Assembly: GCF_900290275.1 (NCBI RefSeq)
Contig: NZ_LT985324.1
Coordinates: 495,609 to 559,608 of the forward strand
Direction of reading: 5' to 3'
DNA length: 64,000 nt
Source: Prevotella merdae
GTDB taxonomy: Bacteria; Bacteroidota; Bacteroidia; Bacteroidales; Bacteroidaceae
Shown here: positions 11,527-29,084 of the stretch, in pieces
Layout: each line of letters starts with the position of its first letter
Position numbering within the stretch: position 1 is the first letter of the stretch
The notes under the pieces: generated by a model
Told to the model about the DNA's origin: nothing
Database searches by the model: none
The model's input: the letters and a program-made list of their open reading frames with translations, nothing else
Made by a program: the position numbers and the translations under genes

Positions 11527-11563
11527 AGCGGAAGTACCACTGAAATGCTACAAATGATGATGG

Positions 11564-11580
11564 ATGTTTTACATATGTTT
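11564..11580. repeat. Candidate attL, 17-bp core
   Basis: ATGTTTTACATATGTTT, identical to 29068-29084. A related 22-mer starts 33 bp further on (11597). GTTTTACA occurs four times between 11566 and 11617, which is how integrase arm-type sites look. Confidence 0.65.
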
Positions 11581-11658
11581 TACAATTTCCAAGGACATGT
11601 TTTACACATGTTTTACAACTTTCGAAATGATTCTAAGAACAATTTAAACATAAAAGAT

Positions 11659-13137
11659 ATGGCAACATTTAAAACAGTGGCACTGAGACAGAGAGCAGAT
11701 GGATTCTGGAATGTATCTATCCGGGTTACTCACAACAGAAAGTCAAGGTATCTAAAAACAGACAAAATCGTAGAAACAAAATCTGTGAACAAAAAGAACC
11801 ATGAAGTCAAGGATCCTTTTGTTCTTGAAGCATGTACTGTCAAGATAGCCCATTTTGCGGAAATGCTCAACAAACAGCCTATTCGCACATGGAGTGTGGA
11901 TGATGTCGTAGCATATTTGGAAAGCGGTACAGCTGATGTATGCTTTTCTGATTATGCAAGGCAATACCATGACAATCTATACAACAATGGTCATGAACGG
12001 AACGCCAGAAACTACGAACTTGCCTATAGACATTTGGAACTCTATGCAGGTTCCAATAAAGTAATGTGTTCGCAACTCACATCCAAGTTTATCAATGGAT
12101 GGATAAAGTCTCTTGCCAAAACAGCAAGAGCCAAGGAAATGTACCCTATATGTATAAGACAAATATTCAGGCAAGCGTTGCTTGAATTTAACGACTATGA
12201 TTGCGGTATCATCCGTATAACAACAAATCCATGGCTAAAAATAAAAATACCAAAGGCAGACACTCCAGAGAAGCGAGCTATTACTATGGAAGAATGCCGT
12301 GCTTTCTTTGCCGCTCCTCTCCCACCTTCCGACCGTATATTGCCTTTGGCAGAGCTTGGACATGATGTTGCCATGATGGTGCTTTGCCTTGCAGGAATGA
12401 ATACGGTTGATATATATAATTTGAAGAAAGAAGATTACCATGATGGCATCATTAGCTATGAGCGAGCAAAAACTCGCAAGTTCAGAAACGATCATGCTTA
12501 TATGGAAATGAAGATACCTGGTATCTTGCAACCTGTATTCGACAAGTATCTTGATAAAACAACCTCGCCTTATCTTTTCGATTTCCACAAACGTATGACC
12601 AACAGCGACAGTTTTGGTGCCAACATTAATTGCGGAATCCGTCAGATATGCGAGAAAAGTCTCCATATTCCACATGAGAAGGCGTATTGTGTATATACAT
12701 TTCGTCATACATGGGCAACTGTTGCCCAAAACGAATGTGGAGCATCCATTGATGAGGTTGGCTTTGCTATGAACCATTCAGACCGTCATCGTGTAACAAG
12801 GTCTTATGTTAAGATAGACTTCTCACCTGCATGGGCATTGAATGAGAAAGTCTTGGAGAAGATATTCTTCACTGAGGATAAATCAAGAGATTATTCGAAG
12901 GCTGATAGCACGGTATTTGAACGTTTCTCATTCCGTCAGATGATGAAAGGCTCTATTTTTTATCGAGGAAGGAAAATCAGTGAGATCACTGATGTTGGCT
13001 TTAACAACGTGGAGGAAATAATAGGTAAACTGATGAAAGAACTTCCAAGCACGATTCCATCAAGAGCAATGGTTCTTATCAAGATAGAGAATGTCGATAA
13101 AGGACAAACTCAAACCTATAGTCGTATGGTTGAATGA
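11659..13137 (+). CDS. Tyrosine recombinase/integrase
   Basis: Site-specific integrase of the mobile element, 492 residues from ATG 11659. The frame is open back to 11545, but that part runs through the att repeats. It has an N-terminal arm-binding region, a SAM-like core-binding domain (about 95-200), then the catalytic domain. Visible catalytic pieces: Arg-His in YTFRHTWAT, His in MNHSD, and the nucleophile Tyr in TRSYVKI. The first arginine of the usual tetrad is replaced (AGMNTVDIYNL, Asn where Arg is expected), and the box-II histidine position is Tyr. Loss of Arg I is known in Bacteroides integrases such as IntDOT. About 90 residues after the tyrosine form an extra C-terminal tail. Confidence 0.88.
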   Translation: MATFKTVALRQRADGFWNVSIRVTHNRKSRYLKTDKIVETKSVNKKNHEVKDPFVLEACTVKIAHFAEMLNKQPIRTWSVDDVVAYLESGTADVCFSDYARQYHDNLYNNGHERNARNYELAYRHLELYAGSNKVMCSQLTSKFINGWIKSLAKTARAKEMYPICIRQIFRQALLEFNDYDCGIIRITTNPWLKIKIPKADTPEKRAITMEECRAFFAAPLPPSDRILPLAELGHDVAMMVLCLAGMNTVDIYNLKKEDYHDGIISYERAKTRKFRNDHAYMEMKIPGILQPVFDKYLDKTTSPYLFDFHKRMTNSDSFGANINCGIRQICEKSLHIPHEKAYCVYTFRHTWATVAQNECGASIDEVGFAMNHSDRHRVTRSYVKIDFSPAWALNEKVLEKIFFTEDKSRDYSKADSTVFERFSFRQMMKGSIFYRGRKISEITDVGFNNVEEIIGKLMKELPSTIPSRAMVLIKIENVDKGQTQTYSRMVE

Positions 13138-13710: not shown

Positions 13711-13806
13711 GTATTACTTTATATCTATATTGCTACATTACCATATTGATGTATTGTTGTATTGCTATATTGTTCCATTTCTACATTATCGTATATCTGC
13801 ATAGCC
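13711..13806. repeat. Array of 8-bp tandem units (array B)
   Basis: Twelve consecutive units in strict 8-bp register, consensus RTATTGYY; the best matches are 13727-13774 (ATATTGCT, ACATTACC, ATATTGAT, GTATTGTT, GTATTGCT, ATATTGTT). Another unit at 13699-13706 is separated by 4 bp. The unit is the same as in front of parA. Confidence 0.7.
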
Positions 13807-14186: not shown

Positions 14187-14242
14187 ATATTGCCGTATTG
14201 GCATATTACTGTATTGTTGTATATCAGTATTGTCATATTACT
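14187..14242. repeat. Array of 8-bp tandem units (array C)
   Basis: Seven consecutive units: ATATTGCC, GTATTGGC, ATATTACT, GTATTGTT, GTATATCA, GTATTGTC, ATATTACT. Same unit and period as arrays at 13711 and 18669. Confidence 0.7.
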
Positions 14243-18654: not shown

Positions 18655-18668
18655 ATTACCTTATTTAT

Positions 18669-18724
18669 ATATTGTTATATTGTTATATTGCCGTATTGAC
18701 ATATTGCTATATTGTCGTATTTCC
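18669..18724. repeat. 8-bp tandem repeat array A, candidate centromere/operator
   Basis: Seven exact 8-bp units: ATATTGTT, ATATTGTT, ATATTGCC, GTATTGAC, ATATTGCT, ATATTGTC, GTATTTCC. It begins 14 bp before the parA start codon and ends just past the parA -7 box, so a protein bound here would also control the operon. Confidence 0.75.
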
Positions 18725-23943: not shown

Positions 23944-24558
23944 TTATTTGTTGACTTCTTCCAAATAGGCATGGGCAAAATCATGCAATGTTTCATTGGC
24001 TGCATACAGAAGGCTACAGTCATGCACATGCTTGAAATTGCGGTTCTGTATGGTTTTGGCTATAGTATAGCCAGTGTCATTATTTGGGAAGAACATATAA
24101 ATATTCTCGTAATCGTCTGTATCAACTACCATAGGTATGAAGTTTCTTACATCAGACATAATGAAACAGTCGCAGTCTTTAGGAAGATTCAGAAAATGTT
24201 TCTTCTGGATGGAGAGATAAGCAAGATAATCCGTAAACTCCCAAAATAGACAGCAATGCTTATTGCTGTCGTCTTTAGAGTGGGCAACAAAAACATATCC
24301 TTTGTTATCCAATGTTATAGGATTTTTCATATAAAGTGGATTAATGAACTCTATCCCACCATTGACATTTCTGATGCCATACCCTCTATAGTTTCTGTTG
24401 AACGAGGAAAATTCAACAAAATAGAGGTTGGGAGAGATTGCCCATTTTTCTGTATTGTGCTGCTTTGCCAACTCTTTTCGTTCTTCGTCTGTCATAGATA
24501 CAAGGCGAAGATTACCTCCTAAATGACTGTATTCTACTCTTCTTTTTGAAATTTTCAT
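23944..24558 (-). CDS. Toprim-like protein, degenerate, next to the primase
   Basis: 204 residues. The second half follows the Toprim layout of mobile-element primases: FWEFTDYLAYLS (acidic motif, about 120-131), DCDCFIMSDVRN, then YMFFPNNDTGYT. In active Toprims the last motif is D-x-D; here the first Asp is Asn. It overlaps the primase gene by 4 nt. It could be a regulatory or structural partner of the primase rather than an enzyme. Confidence 0.6.
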   Translation of the reverse strand: MKISKRRVEYSHLGGNLRLVSMTDEERKELAKQHNTEKWAISPNLYFVEFSSFNRNYRGYGIRNVNGGIEFINPLYMKNPITLDNKGYVFVAHSKDDSNKHCCLFWEFTDYLAYLSIQKKHFLNLPKDCDCFIMSDVRNFIPMVVDTDDYENIYMFFPNNDTGYTIAKTIQNRNFKHVHDCSLLYAANETLHDFAHAYLEEVNK

Positions 24559-25595
24559 GTTCTTTGTTCATTAATGAGTTTGATAAAATCTTCCGTTGTA
24601 TTGCCTATGGCGAAATAGTCACTGATGTCTTTCTCTTTCTTGCTACCTTCCAATGGTAATTGAAGACGAGAAACATTGTATCTATTTTTGAAGTCTTCGA
24701 CTCGTTCTTTCGACTCCTTGATGCCTGTTTCATCTGAATCATACAGAAAGATTATTTCCTTGAAACGCTCAGAAAGTTCTTTCAACTTATCTTCCGGCAC
24801 CTTTGCAGTCTCGCTGTTGAAGGCTATTCCATAAAAACCATGAGCTGCAAGCGAAAGCACGTCTTTCTCACCGCCTGTTATGAATACACGTTCTCCAGAT
24901 GTAGGCAATTTGTTCCATCCGAAAATATATGGCTTGGGTAAGTCACCTGCATACATGAAACGATATTCAGACTTTGGACGATAAAATTTGATGCCAAGCC
25001 CTCCATTGAAGTAATATCCATATATAGGAACAAGTTCACTGCTTACGATAGTAAATTTCTTTCCGTCTGTTTTGACAAACGAACAGCTTTTGATACTTTT
25101 CACGTCGTATCTCAGCAGCGTTTTCTCATCTATCCCATAACGTTGCCAATATTCCAACTCTTTGTCCGAAAAATGCTTTGTTATAGGTTTGAACTCAGAA
25201 ATGGAACATTGCTTTTCCTTGCTACCACAGGCTATGACCTTTTTCAGCTTCACCTGTTTGCTATGAAAACCATCATCATAAGATGAAAACACATTGAGTT
25301 TCATATCTCGGTCAATCTGTTCAAGAAGTCGCTTGAAATCTGTGTTTAAGTTATAGTCAAGCAATTTGGCAACAATAACAAAACAATTACCACAGAATTT
25401 GCTATCACCGAAGTCTTGAAGGAAATAGTAGTAACTATCTCCTCCAGACTCGTTCTTATACAGACGGCAAGATGCCCTTTTGTCCTTACGATAAGGATTG
25501 CGGAAAAACTGGGCAGTACAATCTTCGCCAAGGTAGTGCTTGAAAACGTCAAGTCCTCCATGGGTCTTTTGCAATATTTTCTTAGCTTCTTCCAT
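24555..25595 (-). CDS. DNA primase with zinc motif and Toprim domain
   Basis: 346 residues. The N-terminal CHC2-like part has FFRNPYRKDKRASCRLY and FGDSKFCGNC (about 30-72). The Toprim domain has GGEKDVLSLAAHG and FLYDSDETG near residues 240-305, both with intact acidic residues. Makes primers for replication of the element. It has no helicase domain, so it must act with the host or another helicase, consistent with the loader gene just upstream. Confidence 0.85.
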   Translation of the reverse strand: MEEAKKILQKTHGGLDVFKHYLGEDCTAQFFRNPYRKDKRASCRLYKNESGGDSYYYFLQDFGDSKFCGNCFVIVAKLLDYNLNTDFKRLLEQIDRDMKLNVFSSYDDGFHSKQVKLKKVIACGSKEKQCSISEFKPITKHFSDKELEYWQRYGIDEKTLLRYDVKSIKSCSFVKTDGKKFTIVSSELVPIYGYYFNGGLGIKFYRPKSEYRFMYAGDLPKPYIFGWNKLPTSGERVFITGGEKDVLSLAAHGFYGIAFNSETAKVPEDKLKELSERFKEIIFLYDSDETGIKESKERVEDFKNRYNVSRLQLPLEGSKKEKDISDYFAIGNTTEDFIKLINEQRT

Positions 25596-25600
25596 CCCAA

Positions 25601-26311
25601 TTATAATTTATTTAAAAACGTATATTCATTAACCTTAACTCTAAAATCTATGTCTGGCATAACGATGATGTCGAACATTTCATTCATTCTTGCAGCTATT
25701 CTGTCTCCATACTTAGGGCGAATTTCTACGTTTGCAATGTTTGTTGTCATTATAGTTGGCAAACGAGCCTCGTATCTATAAGCCAGAATATCGGAAACAG
25801 GAGTGTATTCATTGCCGTATGAAGAGACAACCGTAGGCTCCAAGCCAAACTCATCTATACCAAGTATAGTGGAGTTCTTGTATTGCTTGAATGCTGTTTT
25901 GTCTTTGATGGCAACTTCACATAGCTCTTTAGCCGTTTGGCATCTAAAGCCTAACACCTTGTTCTCTGAAATCGGGTTAGGATCTTCAAGTTCCAAAGCA
26001 TTGATAACTTTTCTTATTGCCATAAGGGTTGTTGTCTTTCCATTGCCAGGAATGCCATTCAGCAGCAGACCCCATTTCTTTTCAGGTGAGACAAGCCAAT
26101 TGGCAACTGCTTCCAACTGTTTGCTCTGCTGCTCATTTTTGATGTAATGATGAAAACCGCTTTCCACGACTTTTTCAAACGCACATTGCAAGCCTCGCTT
26201 GCAAAGGTCTTCATCAATAGGCAGCTTAGAAAGATTGGGTATAGACTGCTCCTTCAGACGACTTAGGAACAAATCTACTTCCATTTTGCTTGCCTTGTTT
26301 AGAAACTCCAT
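25601..26311 (-). CDS. DnaC-like helicase loader ATPase
   Basis: AAA+ ATPase of the DnaC/IstB type, 236 residues from ATG 26311 (open frame to 26338). Walker A is GIPGNGKTT near 92-100. Walker B is TILGIDEFG near 150, followed by the sensor TIMTTNI near 192. A downstream HMGDRIAARMNEMF-like region (YGDRIAARMNEMF) is typical of loaders. Stop is 5 nt before the primase. Overlaps the initiator gene by about 85 nt. Together with that gene it forms a lambda O-P style pair. Confidence 0.82.
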   Translation of the reverse strand: MEFLNKASKMEVDLFLSRLKEQSIPNLSKLPIDEDLCKRGLQCAFEKVVESGFHHYIKNEQQSKQLEAVANWLVSPEKKWGLLLNGIPGNGKTTTLMAIRKVINALELEDPNPISENKVLGFRCQTAKELCEVAIKDKTAFKQYKNSTILGIDEFGLEPTVVSSYGNEYTPVSDILAYRYEARLPTIMTTNIANVEIRPKYGDRIAARMNEMFDIIVMPDIDFRVKVNEYTFLNKL

Positions 26312-27566
26312 ATTGATTATTACTTTTTGATGTTGCACTATTATTTTTATAAAGCCAATCTACAAAATGGCTCTTGTAATCTTGAATGTCCGTATGAGTT
26401 GTCTTTCCTCGACATATCATGTCTAAATCGAAATCCTCCAACCTACACTTTACAAGTTCAACTCTGGCAAGAGAGAACTTTCTTGCGATAGCTCCAAGCC
26501 AAAGCTCATCCTGCTCCAAAAGCTCCAGGAAACTTTCTTTCCTTGCTTTCTTTTGTTGGTTTTCTTTCTCTTCTTTCCCATCCAAAACTTCCAAATTCTC
26601 AACTTCTCTCGCATGCGCGGATGTTGATGATATATTTTTCTTTATTTCTTTATTTCTTATATTCTTATATGTTGTTACTTGTATGTTATCTGTGTGTTGG
26701 TCGTGTGTTGGCTGCATGTTAGCAGTATGTTGGTTGTATGTTAGCTGTGTGTTAGTTTGAGAATCATTATCAATGTAACCCATTACACCACAGGTGTTTA
26801 CATCCAAATTTGGTTGGTCGCTTTTCGAGGCGAAAACCAAAGCTTGCTGCACACTTTCACACTGAATGTTAGTTGTATGTTGGTTGTATGTTAGCTGTAT
26901 GTTAGAAGGTGCAAATCCAGACTGGTAACTATCATAATTACAGATAGTTATGATGTGTGGTCGGTTGGTCGCTTTTTGAGAAATTAATATTTCTTTAGAT
27001 TTCTGCAACTTCTCTATACACGTTCTGATACTCCTGTCCGATATGTTGGTCGATTCTGTCAGAGACCTTCTTGTCACCATTATTTGACCTCTTCCAAGAA
27101 TATTCTCACCATTCGCAGAAGGACAGTAGTTAACATTCAACAACAGGTGTATGAACAGATGAAAGGTTATGGCATCCTTGTACCAACGCCAATCTTCTAT
27201 CTTACGATACAACTTTACCCAATTTGGGTTGAGTTCGTCCTTACCCTCTGGCTGAAAACTATCATACGCCACGACAGATATTGTTGTGTGATGTTTGCAA
27301 GACAAAACTTTTATCTGTTTGGTCTTCAATAACTTCTTTATGCAGGTTCGCACTGTCTGCAATGACAAACCAGTATTGTTGCACAATTGTGCATAGCTTG
27401 TGAGCATCTGTCCTCTCTTGATAACCACTTCCCCTATTTCCTTGTCGGAAAATGAGGCGTGAAGAAGAATATGCAGGTACAGAAGCACCATGTGCGAATC
27501 TTTATACCAACGCCAATCACAAAATGTTCTTGGCAATTTTATCCAACTATAATCCAAACCTATCAT
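26226..27566 (-). CDS. Replication initiator with two winged-helix domains and internal iterons
   Basis: 446 residues. The N-terminal half holds two related domains (WIKLPRTFCDWRWYKD... at 8-100 and WVKLYRKIEDWRWYKD... at 115-205). Each ends in a winged-helix unit (LSLQTVRTCIKKLLKTKQI and ISDRSIRTCIEKLQKSKEI). The middle is a low-complexity stretch with an 11-residue repeat (TYNQHTANMQ-like), encoded by two blocks of 11-bp DNA repeats. The C-terminus resembles DnaD-like or loader-binding ends. The layout is that of lambda O: an initiator whose own gene carries the origin. Confidence 0.75.
   Translation of the reverse strand: MIGLDYSWIKLPRTFCDWRWYKDSHMVLLYLHILLHASFSDKEIGEVVIKRGQMLTSYAQLCNNTGLSLQTVRTCIKKLLKTKQIKVLSCKHHTTISVVAYDSFQPEGKDELNPNWVKLYRKIEDWRWYKDAITFHLFIHLLLNVNYCPSANGENILGRGQIMVTRRSLTESTNISDRSIRTCIEKLQKSKEILISQKATNRPHIITICNYDSYQSGFAPSNIQLTYNQHTTNIQCESVQQALVFASKSDQPNLDVNTCGVMGYIDNDSQTNTQLTYNQHTANMQPTHDQHTDNIQVTTYKNIRNKEIKKNISSTSAHAREVENLEVLDGKEEKENQQKKARKESFLELLEQDELWLGAIARKFSLARVELVKCRLEDFDLDMICRGKTTHTDIQDYKSHFVDWLYKNNSATSKSNNQYGVSKQGKQNGSRFVPKSSEGAVYTQSF
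26681..26757. repeat. Seven 11-bp iterons, candidate origin block 1
   Basis: Units of the form GTATGTTRGYT at exact 11-bp steps from 26681 (GTATGTTATCT, GTGTGTTGGTC, GTGTGTTGGCT, GCATGTTAGCA, GTATGTTGGTT, GTATGTTAGCT, GTGTGTTAGTT). All lie inside the initiator coding sequence. Confidence 0.75.
26864..26907. repeat. Four 11-bp iterons, candidate origin block 2
   Basis: GAATGTTAGTT, GTATGTTGGTT, GTATGTTAGCT, GTATGTTAGAA: the same unit and period as block 1, about 105 bp away. Confidence 0.75.
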
Positions 27567-28548: not shown

Positions 28549-28614
28549 ATAAAATTATTAATTACATATAATAAAACACTTAAATATATAAGAAATATTA
28601 ACATAAATAAGGGT

Positions 28615-29067: not shown

Positions 29068-29084
29068 ATGTTTTACATATGTTT
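29068..29084. repeat. Candidate attR, 17-bp core
   Basis: Identical to 11564-11580. On the far side lie 100 bp of ordinary intergenic sequence and a terminator. Confidence 0.65.

What the first reader, a model, noticed from the sequence alone, without database searches (positions are those of the whole stretch)
26681..26907. Origin iterons inside the initiator gene, lambda O-P style
Two blocks (7 and 4 units) of an 11-bp repeat GTATGTTRGYT lie within the coding sequence of a two-winged-helix initiator. The next genes are a DnaC-like loader and a primase. In lambda the origin also lies inside gene O, followed by the loader gene P. Eleven bp is about one helical turn, and 33 bp gives the 11-residue protein repeat, so one stretch serves as both DNA site and peptide.
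Basis: partly seen in the sequence, partly recalled or inferred. Interest (0 to 1): 0.8.

Follow-up and report, generated by a model that had tools for sequence, protein, structure and literature searches.

The report
Replication origin inside its initiator gene
A small mobile element in a bacterial chromosome appears to hide its replication start site as short repeats inside the gene for the protein that reads them, a phage-like trick whose protein-to-DNA matching rule can be read from related sequences.

Summary
In detail: 7 + 4 units of an 11-bp repeat lie in the predicted-disordered linker of a 446-aa initiator with two winged-helix (wHTH) domains; loader and primase genes follow. The DNA is constrained beyond what the peptide requires. 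Of 91 non-redundant wHTH initiator genes from fetched loci, 68 have 11 bp as best frame-breaking period (8 of 91 after codon shuffling); arrays start right after the wHTH codons and an AT-rich stretch usually follows. Repeat sequences differ but follow one recognition-helix residue: Gln with YAAC, Arg with YGAC, Ser with YGAA (held-out arrays with Q, R or S: 76 of 86 fit, 74 by a stricter rule; 21 of 107 have other residues). The window's first wHTH has Gln and all 11 units are YAAC; a Segatella plasmid relative has Arg and GAC-core units. The second wHTH carries the other residue, and sites of its predicted type are enriched in the gene.

Best reading: an origin inside the initiator gene (lambda O / SPP1 gp38 / TP901-1 Rep kind) on a ~17.5-kb integrative element, with a tandem-wHTH initiator that may read two site classes. 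The idea is known; my searches did not find the 11-bp rule, the helix code or the two-specificity initiator.

The parts
26226..27566 (-). Initiator gene, 446 aa: two tandem wHTH domains, predicted-disordered linker coded by the iterons, C-terminal DUF7833 (PF25200)
27246..27557 (-). First wHTH (residues ~4-107); recognition helix 69-82 with Gln70, wing with Lys91
26919..27224 (-). Second wHTH (residues ~115-216); recognition helix 177-189 with Arg178, wing with Asn201 (model weak at 199-201)
26680..26756 (-). Iteron block next to the AT-rich region: 7 units of 11 bp, coding-strand core YAAC
26863..26906 (-). Iteron block upstream in the gene: 4 units of 11 bp, core YAAC
26620..26679 (-). AT-rich (82%), purine-rich (70% on coding strand) stretch beside the 7-unit block: candidate unwinding element
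   Evidence: an AT-richer stretch follows the array in 70 of 74 genes
26813..26823 (-). Candidate second-class site AAGCGACCAAC (coding strand), between the blocks
26964..26974 (-). Candidate second-class site AAGCGACCAAC
27045..27055 (-). Candidate second-class site AATCGACCAAC
25601..26338 (-). DnaC-like helicase loader (start may be the ATG at 26311), overlapping the 3' end of the initiator gene
24555..25595 (-). Toprim DNA primase
11545..13137 (+). Integrase ORF (Phage_int_SAM_5 domain) of the element
11564..11580 (+). Candidate left attachment core, 17-bp direct repeat
29068..29084 (+). Candidate right attachment core, same 17 bp; element would be ~17.5 kb

Best explanation
The stretch is the replication origin of a ~17.5-kb integrative element and is built into the gene of its own initiator. 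The first winged-helix domain binds the 11-bp YAAC units, one per helical turn, so that several initiators line up on one face of the DNA. This strains and opens the AT-rich, purine-rich stretch next to the 7-unit block (inferred). The initiator's C-terminal part then brings in the DnaC-like loader, which loads the host replicative helicase, and the element's primase starts synthesis (inferred from gene families). The coded linker is predicted disordered, so the DNA can evolve as a binding site while staying open in frame. The second winged helix carries a different recognition residue (Arg178) and may read a separate class of sites (AAGCGACCAAC) in the same gene. Shown here by sequence: the arrays, their constraint beyond the peptide, their covariation with the recognition helix, and the flanking AT-rich DNA. 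Not shown: binding, unwinding, replication.
For: Array real and 11-bp based. Relatives: 68 of 91 non-redundant genes have best frame-breaking period 11 against 8 of 91 codon-shuffled; 78 of 91 beat a peptide-preserving null at p<0.05; 74 of 91 have an array scoring at least 22/33, with AT above gene mean after it in 70 of 74. Held-out set: period 11 in 93 of 125, control 8 of 125. Covariation: of 105 domain columns two pass the permutation limit, one at the start of the recognition helix and one in the wing (model). Code in 62 training arrays: Q 17/17 YAAC, R 12/14 YGAC, S 13/13 YGAA, other residues 18. Held-out, 107 arrays: Q 42/46, R 3/3, S 31/37, other residues 21. Eleven disjoint R/Q pairs on the best tree: 8 go the predicted way, 0 opposite, 3 do not differ or are unclassed. 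Tandem family: window WH1 Gln, 11 of 11 units YAAC; Segatella WH1 Arg, eight units in register, six YGAC and two AGAC (read); P0059 WH1 Arg with a linker peptide fully compatible with an 11-bp repeat (33/33, 0 of 400 shuffles) whose unit would contain CGAC (codon-table inference). Fold like iteron-binding RepE and Pi. Precedents: SPP1 oriL in gene 38 (passages), lambdoid ori in O (passages).
Against: No binding or replication data. The recognition column was picked on the same training set it describes; the held-out loci were found with queries built from training members, so they are new sequences but not free of kinship. Under the stricter phase rule training S is 11/13, held-out S 27/37 and R 2/3. 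The tree is weakly resolved (18 of 178 inner branches starred); on supported branches only 2 independent R/Q pairs remain, too few for significance. 17 of 91 genes have no array at the 22/33 cut. In the automatic scan the best period of the Segatella gene is 13, at another place, with 11 second. 28 of the 30 homologues P0009-P0038 are 396 aa, and the one aligned lacks one block, so either one block suffices or those are assembly collapses. Cumulative GC skew shows no turning point at the array. Other repeat arrays in the element (8-bp TATTGNNR) could also be part of an origin.
Confidence: 0.83

Rival explanations
1. The repeats are initiator-binding sites used for autoregulation or copy-number control (roadblock, handcuffing), while the actual origin is elsewhere, for example at the 8-bp TATTGNNR arrays or the AT-rich gap near 28.55 kb.
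For: TATTGNNR arrays at 13744-13775, 14188-14219 and 18662-18717 exceed chance (14 hits window-wide, 2.4 expected, 0 of 100 shuffles); the stretch near 28550 is the most AT-rich of the 24.0-28.6 kb part scanned.
Against: The TATTG array at 18.66 kb sits directly upstream of parA, as partition sites often do (recalled). An AT-richer stretch after the in-gene array recurs in 70 of 74 genes, and in SPP1 the in-gene repeats belong to an origin that works in vitro (passages).
Confidence: 0.1
2. The DNA repeat is a by-product of a selected peptide repeat (an 11-residue protein motif).
For: The peptide does repeat every 11 residues (TYNQHTTNIQL), and much of the DNA self-match follows from it (null mean 92 of the 113 matches at lag 11).
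Against: Lag 11 exceeds a peptide-preserving null here and in 78 of 91 genes; linker peptides differ between homologues yet the seven tested all fit an 11-bp DNA unit; linker predicted disordered.
Confidence: 0.03
3. Neutral tandem-repeat expansion by slippage.
For: Homologues differ by 11 residues (P0047, P0075) or by loss of a block (P0009, P0098).
Against: Slippage of an 11-bp unit breaks the frame; 33-bp duplication would make units three apart clearly more alike than neighbours, which is not seen (8.6 against 8.3 of 11); covariation with the recognition helix.
Confidence: 0.04

Closest known systems
Lambda O / ori-lambda (and HK/Sf6-type O proteins)
   Same: Initiator gene holding its own iterons with an AT-rich stretch (passages), helicase loader gene next; the annotated putative in-gene origin of Sf6 gene 43 (L082 1820-1915) overlaps the 11-bp array found in that gene (L082 about 1809-1852)
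   Different: Lambda iterons are 18 bp, starting 20, 24 and 23 bp apart; here 11 bp and two wHTH domains, on an element with no phage structural gene found
SPP1 gp38 with oriL
   Same: Direct repeats within the initiator gene plus AT-rich DUE, separate helicase loader (passages)
   Different: Phage, with a second origin elsewhere; record not in the collections, so repeat length not compared
Lactococcal TP901-1 / Tuc2009 Rep (DnaD-like)
   Same: Repeats in the DnaD-like gene followed by AT-rich DNA (TP901-1); the Tuc2009 record notes that the gene contains the origin
   Different: 15-bp repeat period in TP901-1; one wHTH (recalled, not tested)
Plasmid Rep proteins RepE (F) and Pi (R6K)
   Different: 6-10% identity; their iterons lie outside the gene (recalled)

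Membership tests
DnaD-like / O-like phage initiators | Sequence match of the N-terminal wHTH | tested here: met
   phrog_2514 1.3e-33, phrog_186 2.5e-18; tblastn to phage O proteins
In-gene origin class | Iterons within the initiator coding sequence | tested here: met
In-gene origin class | AT-rich unwinding region beside the iterons | tested here: met
   82-86% AT at 26620-26680; that it unwinds is not tested
In-gene origin class | Replication starts there | not testable with these tools
   needs experiment
Lambda ori proper | 18-bp iterons spaced 20-24 bp | tested here: not met
   11-bp units against lambda record
Tandem-wHTH plasmid initiators (RepE/Pi) | Tandem winged helices in one chain | tested here: met
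   model mean pLDDT 64.9, pTM 0.49, so the arrangement of the two domains is less sure than each domain
Tandem-wHTH plasmid initiators (RepE/Pi) | Sequence relationship | tested here: inconclusive
   No PDB sequence hit at E 0.1; 6-11% identity in fold alignments; no Rep_3 among the Pfam hits listed
Temperate phage | Structural or packaging genes in the element | tested here: inconclusive
   None among the ORFs scanned between 11.5 and 29.1 kb; small ORFs were not all scanned, and PHROGs was run on the 22.8-29.0 kb proteins only

The most novel reading that the evidence does not exclude
A widespread class of origins obeys a readable one-residue code. The residue at the start of the wHTH recognition helix predicts the core of an 11-bp iteron array lying about 340 nt into the same gene. 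The tandem-wHTH members (this window, Segatella plasmid) are two-specificity initiators: the first wHTH reads the iterons and the second reads a separate set of sites in the same gene, with the two specificities exchanged between the two elements.
Probability: 0.42. Interest if true: 0.78.

Novelty: new variant of a known kind. Interest (0 to 1): 0.62.

Why it matters
If right, origins of many uncultured phages and elements (543 and 337 relatives confirmed in two viral scans, of which 80 each were kept) could be located, and their initiator specificity predicted, from one gene. It links phage O/DnaD-type initiators with tandem-wHTH plasmid initiators. It is also a clear case of one sequence constrained as a DNA site across all three reading frames while coding a tolerated disordered linker.

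Tried and rejected
No whole genome is held for the window, so its genome could not be searched. Near-identical DNA was not found in plasmids. P0060 as query found no viral relative; searches with it in 397 family-level and 111 genus-level genomes gave partial-length matches only, so the 40%-identical tandem family was studied as protein only. PDB sequence search gave nothing at E 0.1. Cumulative GC skew of the element had no turning point at the array. NCBIfam named only the loader, below its cut-offs. The longer second-class motif GTTGGTCGMTT with one mismatch is not clearly above chance window-wide (5 hits, 1.7 expected, 4 of 100 shuffles reach 5), unlike the 8-mer GTTGGTCG (7 hits, 4 of them in the initiator gene, 1.15 expected, 0 of 100). 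The peptide-repeat and slippage explanations are disfavoured (see rivals). Paper searches (search listings seen) listed nothing whose title or abstract start described an 11-bp iteron rule or a recognition code in phage initiators; subscription papers are not held. Rows dropped: 129 distinct genes to 91 (short or redundant); 91 to 74 (array under 22/33); 74 to 62 (array under 24/33, which took out the Segatella gene, and the window itself); 185 new loci to 125 (redundant or like training) to 107 (array under 24/33).

Full report
What is there. The window carries, at 26680-26756 and 26863-26906, seven and four tandem units of an 11-bp repeat. Read on the coding strand the units are variants of CTAACATACAA, and all 11 hold YAAC. 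They sit inside a 446-codon ORF, 26226-27566 on the minus strand. The protein has two tandem winged-helix domains of the DnaD/O type and a C-terminal DUF7833. A structure model (mean pLDDT 64.9, pTM 0.49) is mostly confident within both winged helices; residues 218-330, which include the part coded by the arrays, are below 50 and read as disordered. A DnaC-like loader and a Toprim primase follow in the same direction. The surrounding element has an integrase ORF at 11545-13137 and a ParA, and a 17-bp direct repeat at 11564 and 29068 that may be the attachment core, giving about 17.5 kb. No phage structural gene was seen among the ORFs scanned; not every ORF was scanned.

Is the DNA repeat more than the peptide repeat? 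Yes. Among 2000 synonymous sequences coding the same linker, 1 reaches the observed 11-bp self-match (113 of 268 positions, null mean 92); the 33-bp self-match is fully explained by the peptide. Units three apart are hardly more alike than neighbours (8.6 against 8.3 of 11), so the array is not a set of 33-bp duplications.

Relatives. Loci came from GTDB genomes, IMG/VR, phage and plasmid records. A wHTH initiator gene was found in 154 of 157 sources, 129 distinct, 91 non-redundant of at least 150 aa. For 68 of the 91 the best period that is not a multiple of 3 is 11, for 7 more it is 22; after one codon shuffle per gene 11 wins in 8 of 91. 78 of 91 beat a peptide-preserving null at p<0.05. 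74 of 91 have an array scoring at least 22 of 33, starting at a median of nt 340, just after the winged-helix codons. The 60 bp after it are more AT-rich than the gene in 70 of 74 and more purine-rich in 63 of 74. That count took the window's 4-unit block, which is not followed by AT-rich DNA (53%); the window's AT-rich stretch lies beside the 7-unit block and was measured apart. In a second set, 185 further loci gave 125 genes unlike the first set; period 11 wins in 93, 22 in 14, against 8 of 125 for 11 after shuffling. Seven proteins (P0059, P0060, P0083, P0075, P0053, P0052, P0001; the last is nearly the window's own) were tested without DNA: all fit an 11-bp unit, 0 to 2 of 400 shuffled linkers doing as well, while at lags 8, 10, 13 and 14 at least 29 of 400 do.

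The protein reads the repeat. On 62 arrays with single-domain proteins, similarity of iterons was compared with identity at each of 105 protein columns after removing overall identity. Two columns pass the permutation limit of 0.226: the one aligned with Gln70/Arg178 (0.309), at the start of the recognition helix, and the one aligned with Lys91/Asn201 (0.250), in the wing. The first gives a simple rule: Gln goes with YAAC (17 of 17), Arg with YGAC (12 of 14), Ser with YGAA (13 of 13); the other 18 arrays have other residues and no rule. A stricter phase rule gives 17 of 17, 12 of 14 and 11 of 13. The Arg-guanine and Gln-adenine preference is textbook (recalled). On 107 held-out arrays: Gln 42 of 46, Arg 3 of 3, Ser 31 of 37; stricter rule 45 of 46, 2 of 3 and 27 of 37; 21 arrays carry another residue. 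Kinship is a concern: on supported branches only two independent Arg/Gln pairs exist, too few for a test. On the weakly resolved best tree 11 disjoint pairs exist; 8 go the predicted way, none the other, 3 do not differ or are unclassed.

The tandem family. The first winged helices of the window protein and of the Segatella plasmid protein lie in one starred set of six rows (99), by the nearest rows printed the six first domains of the tandem proteins (the members of the set are not printed). The window has Gln in domain 1 and YAAC iterons. The Segatella hominis 317-kb plasmid, which carries the same initiator-loader-primase order (annotated as hypothetical, hypothetical, toprim), has Arg in domain 1 and eight 11-bp units in register, six YGAC and two AGAC, followed by AT-rich DNA (read; extends its array to 7 units). 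The automatic scan ranks a 13-bp period elsewhere in that gene first and 11 second. So domain 1 appears to read the array in both. Domain 2 has the opposite residue in both. In the window gene, sites of the Arg type, YGACCARC, occur 4 times against 0.58 expected from synonymous sequences (1 of 20000 as many); the exact CGACCAAC occurs 4 times against 0.15 (0 of 20000), though that string was chosen after seeing it. The Gln-type pattern is not enriched (2 against 1.36). In the Segatella gene the Arg type is absent, the Gln-type pattern YAACCARC occurs once (1380 of 20000 as many, not significant) and GTAACCAG twice (18 of 20000, chosen after the fact). A homologue 60% identical over two thirds of the window protein (P0058) has KATNP where others have KSDQPN between the blocks; both can be coded by AAAGCGACCAACC in different frames (codon-table inference). 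Two of the window's sites code conserved parts of domain 2 itself, so protein constraint may help to keep them. I take all this as a promising but unproven sign that the second domain has its own sites.

Verdict. The arrangement is a known kind. What I did not find described is the family-wide 11-bp rule, the recognition-helix code, and the tandem-domain variant on an integrative element and a plasmid (paper searches; listings only), which does not exclude subscription papers.

Noticed in passing
13744-13775, 14188-14219, 18662-18717: Three arrays of an 8-bp motif TATTGNNR, the last directly upstream of parA: candidate partition sites or part of another control region.
   Followed up: partly
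11564-11617: Repeats of ATGTTTTACA next to the integrase start, overlapping the candidate attachment core; may be integrase arm sites.
   Followed up: partly
26784-26796: Short inverted repeat ACACC-TGT-GGTGT (coding strand) in the spacer between the two iteron blocks, read by eye.
   Followed up: no
protein homologues P0009-P0038: 28 of these 30 close homologues are 396 aa; P0009, the one aligned, lacks one iteron block by a 50-residue deletion. Recombination between blocks or assembly collapse.
   Followed up: no
protein homologue P0051: Initiator N-terminal part fused to a C-terminus with conjugation coupling-protein Pfam accessions (names recalled) in a 78-kb contig; chimera or recombinant.
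   Followed up: no
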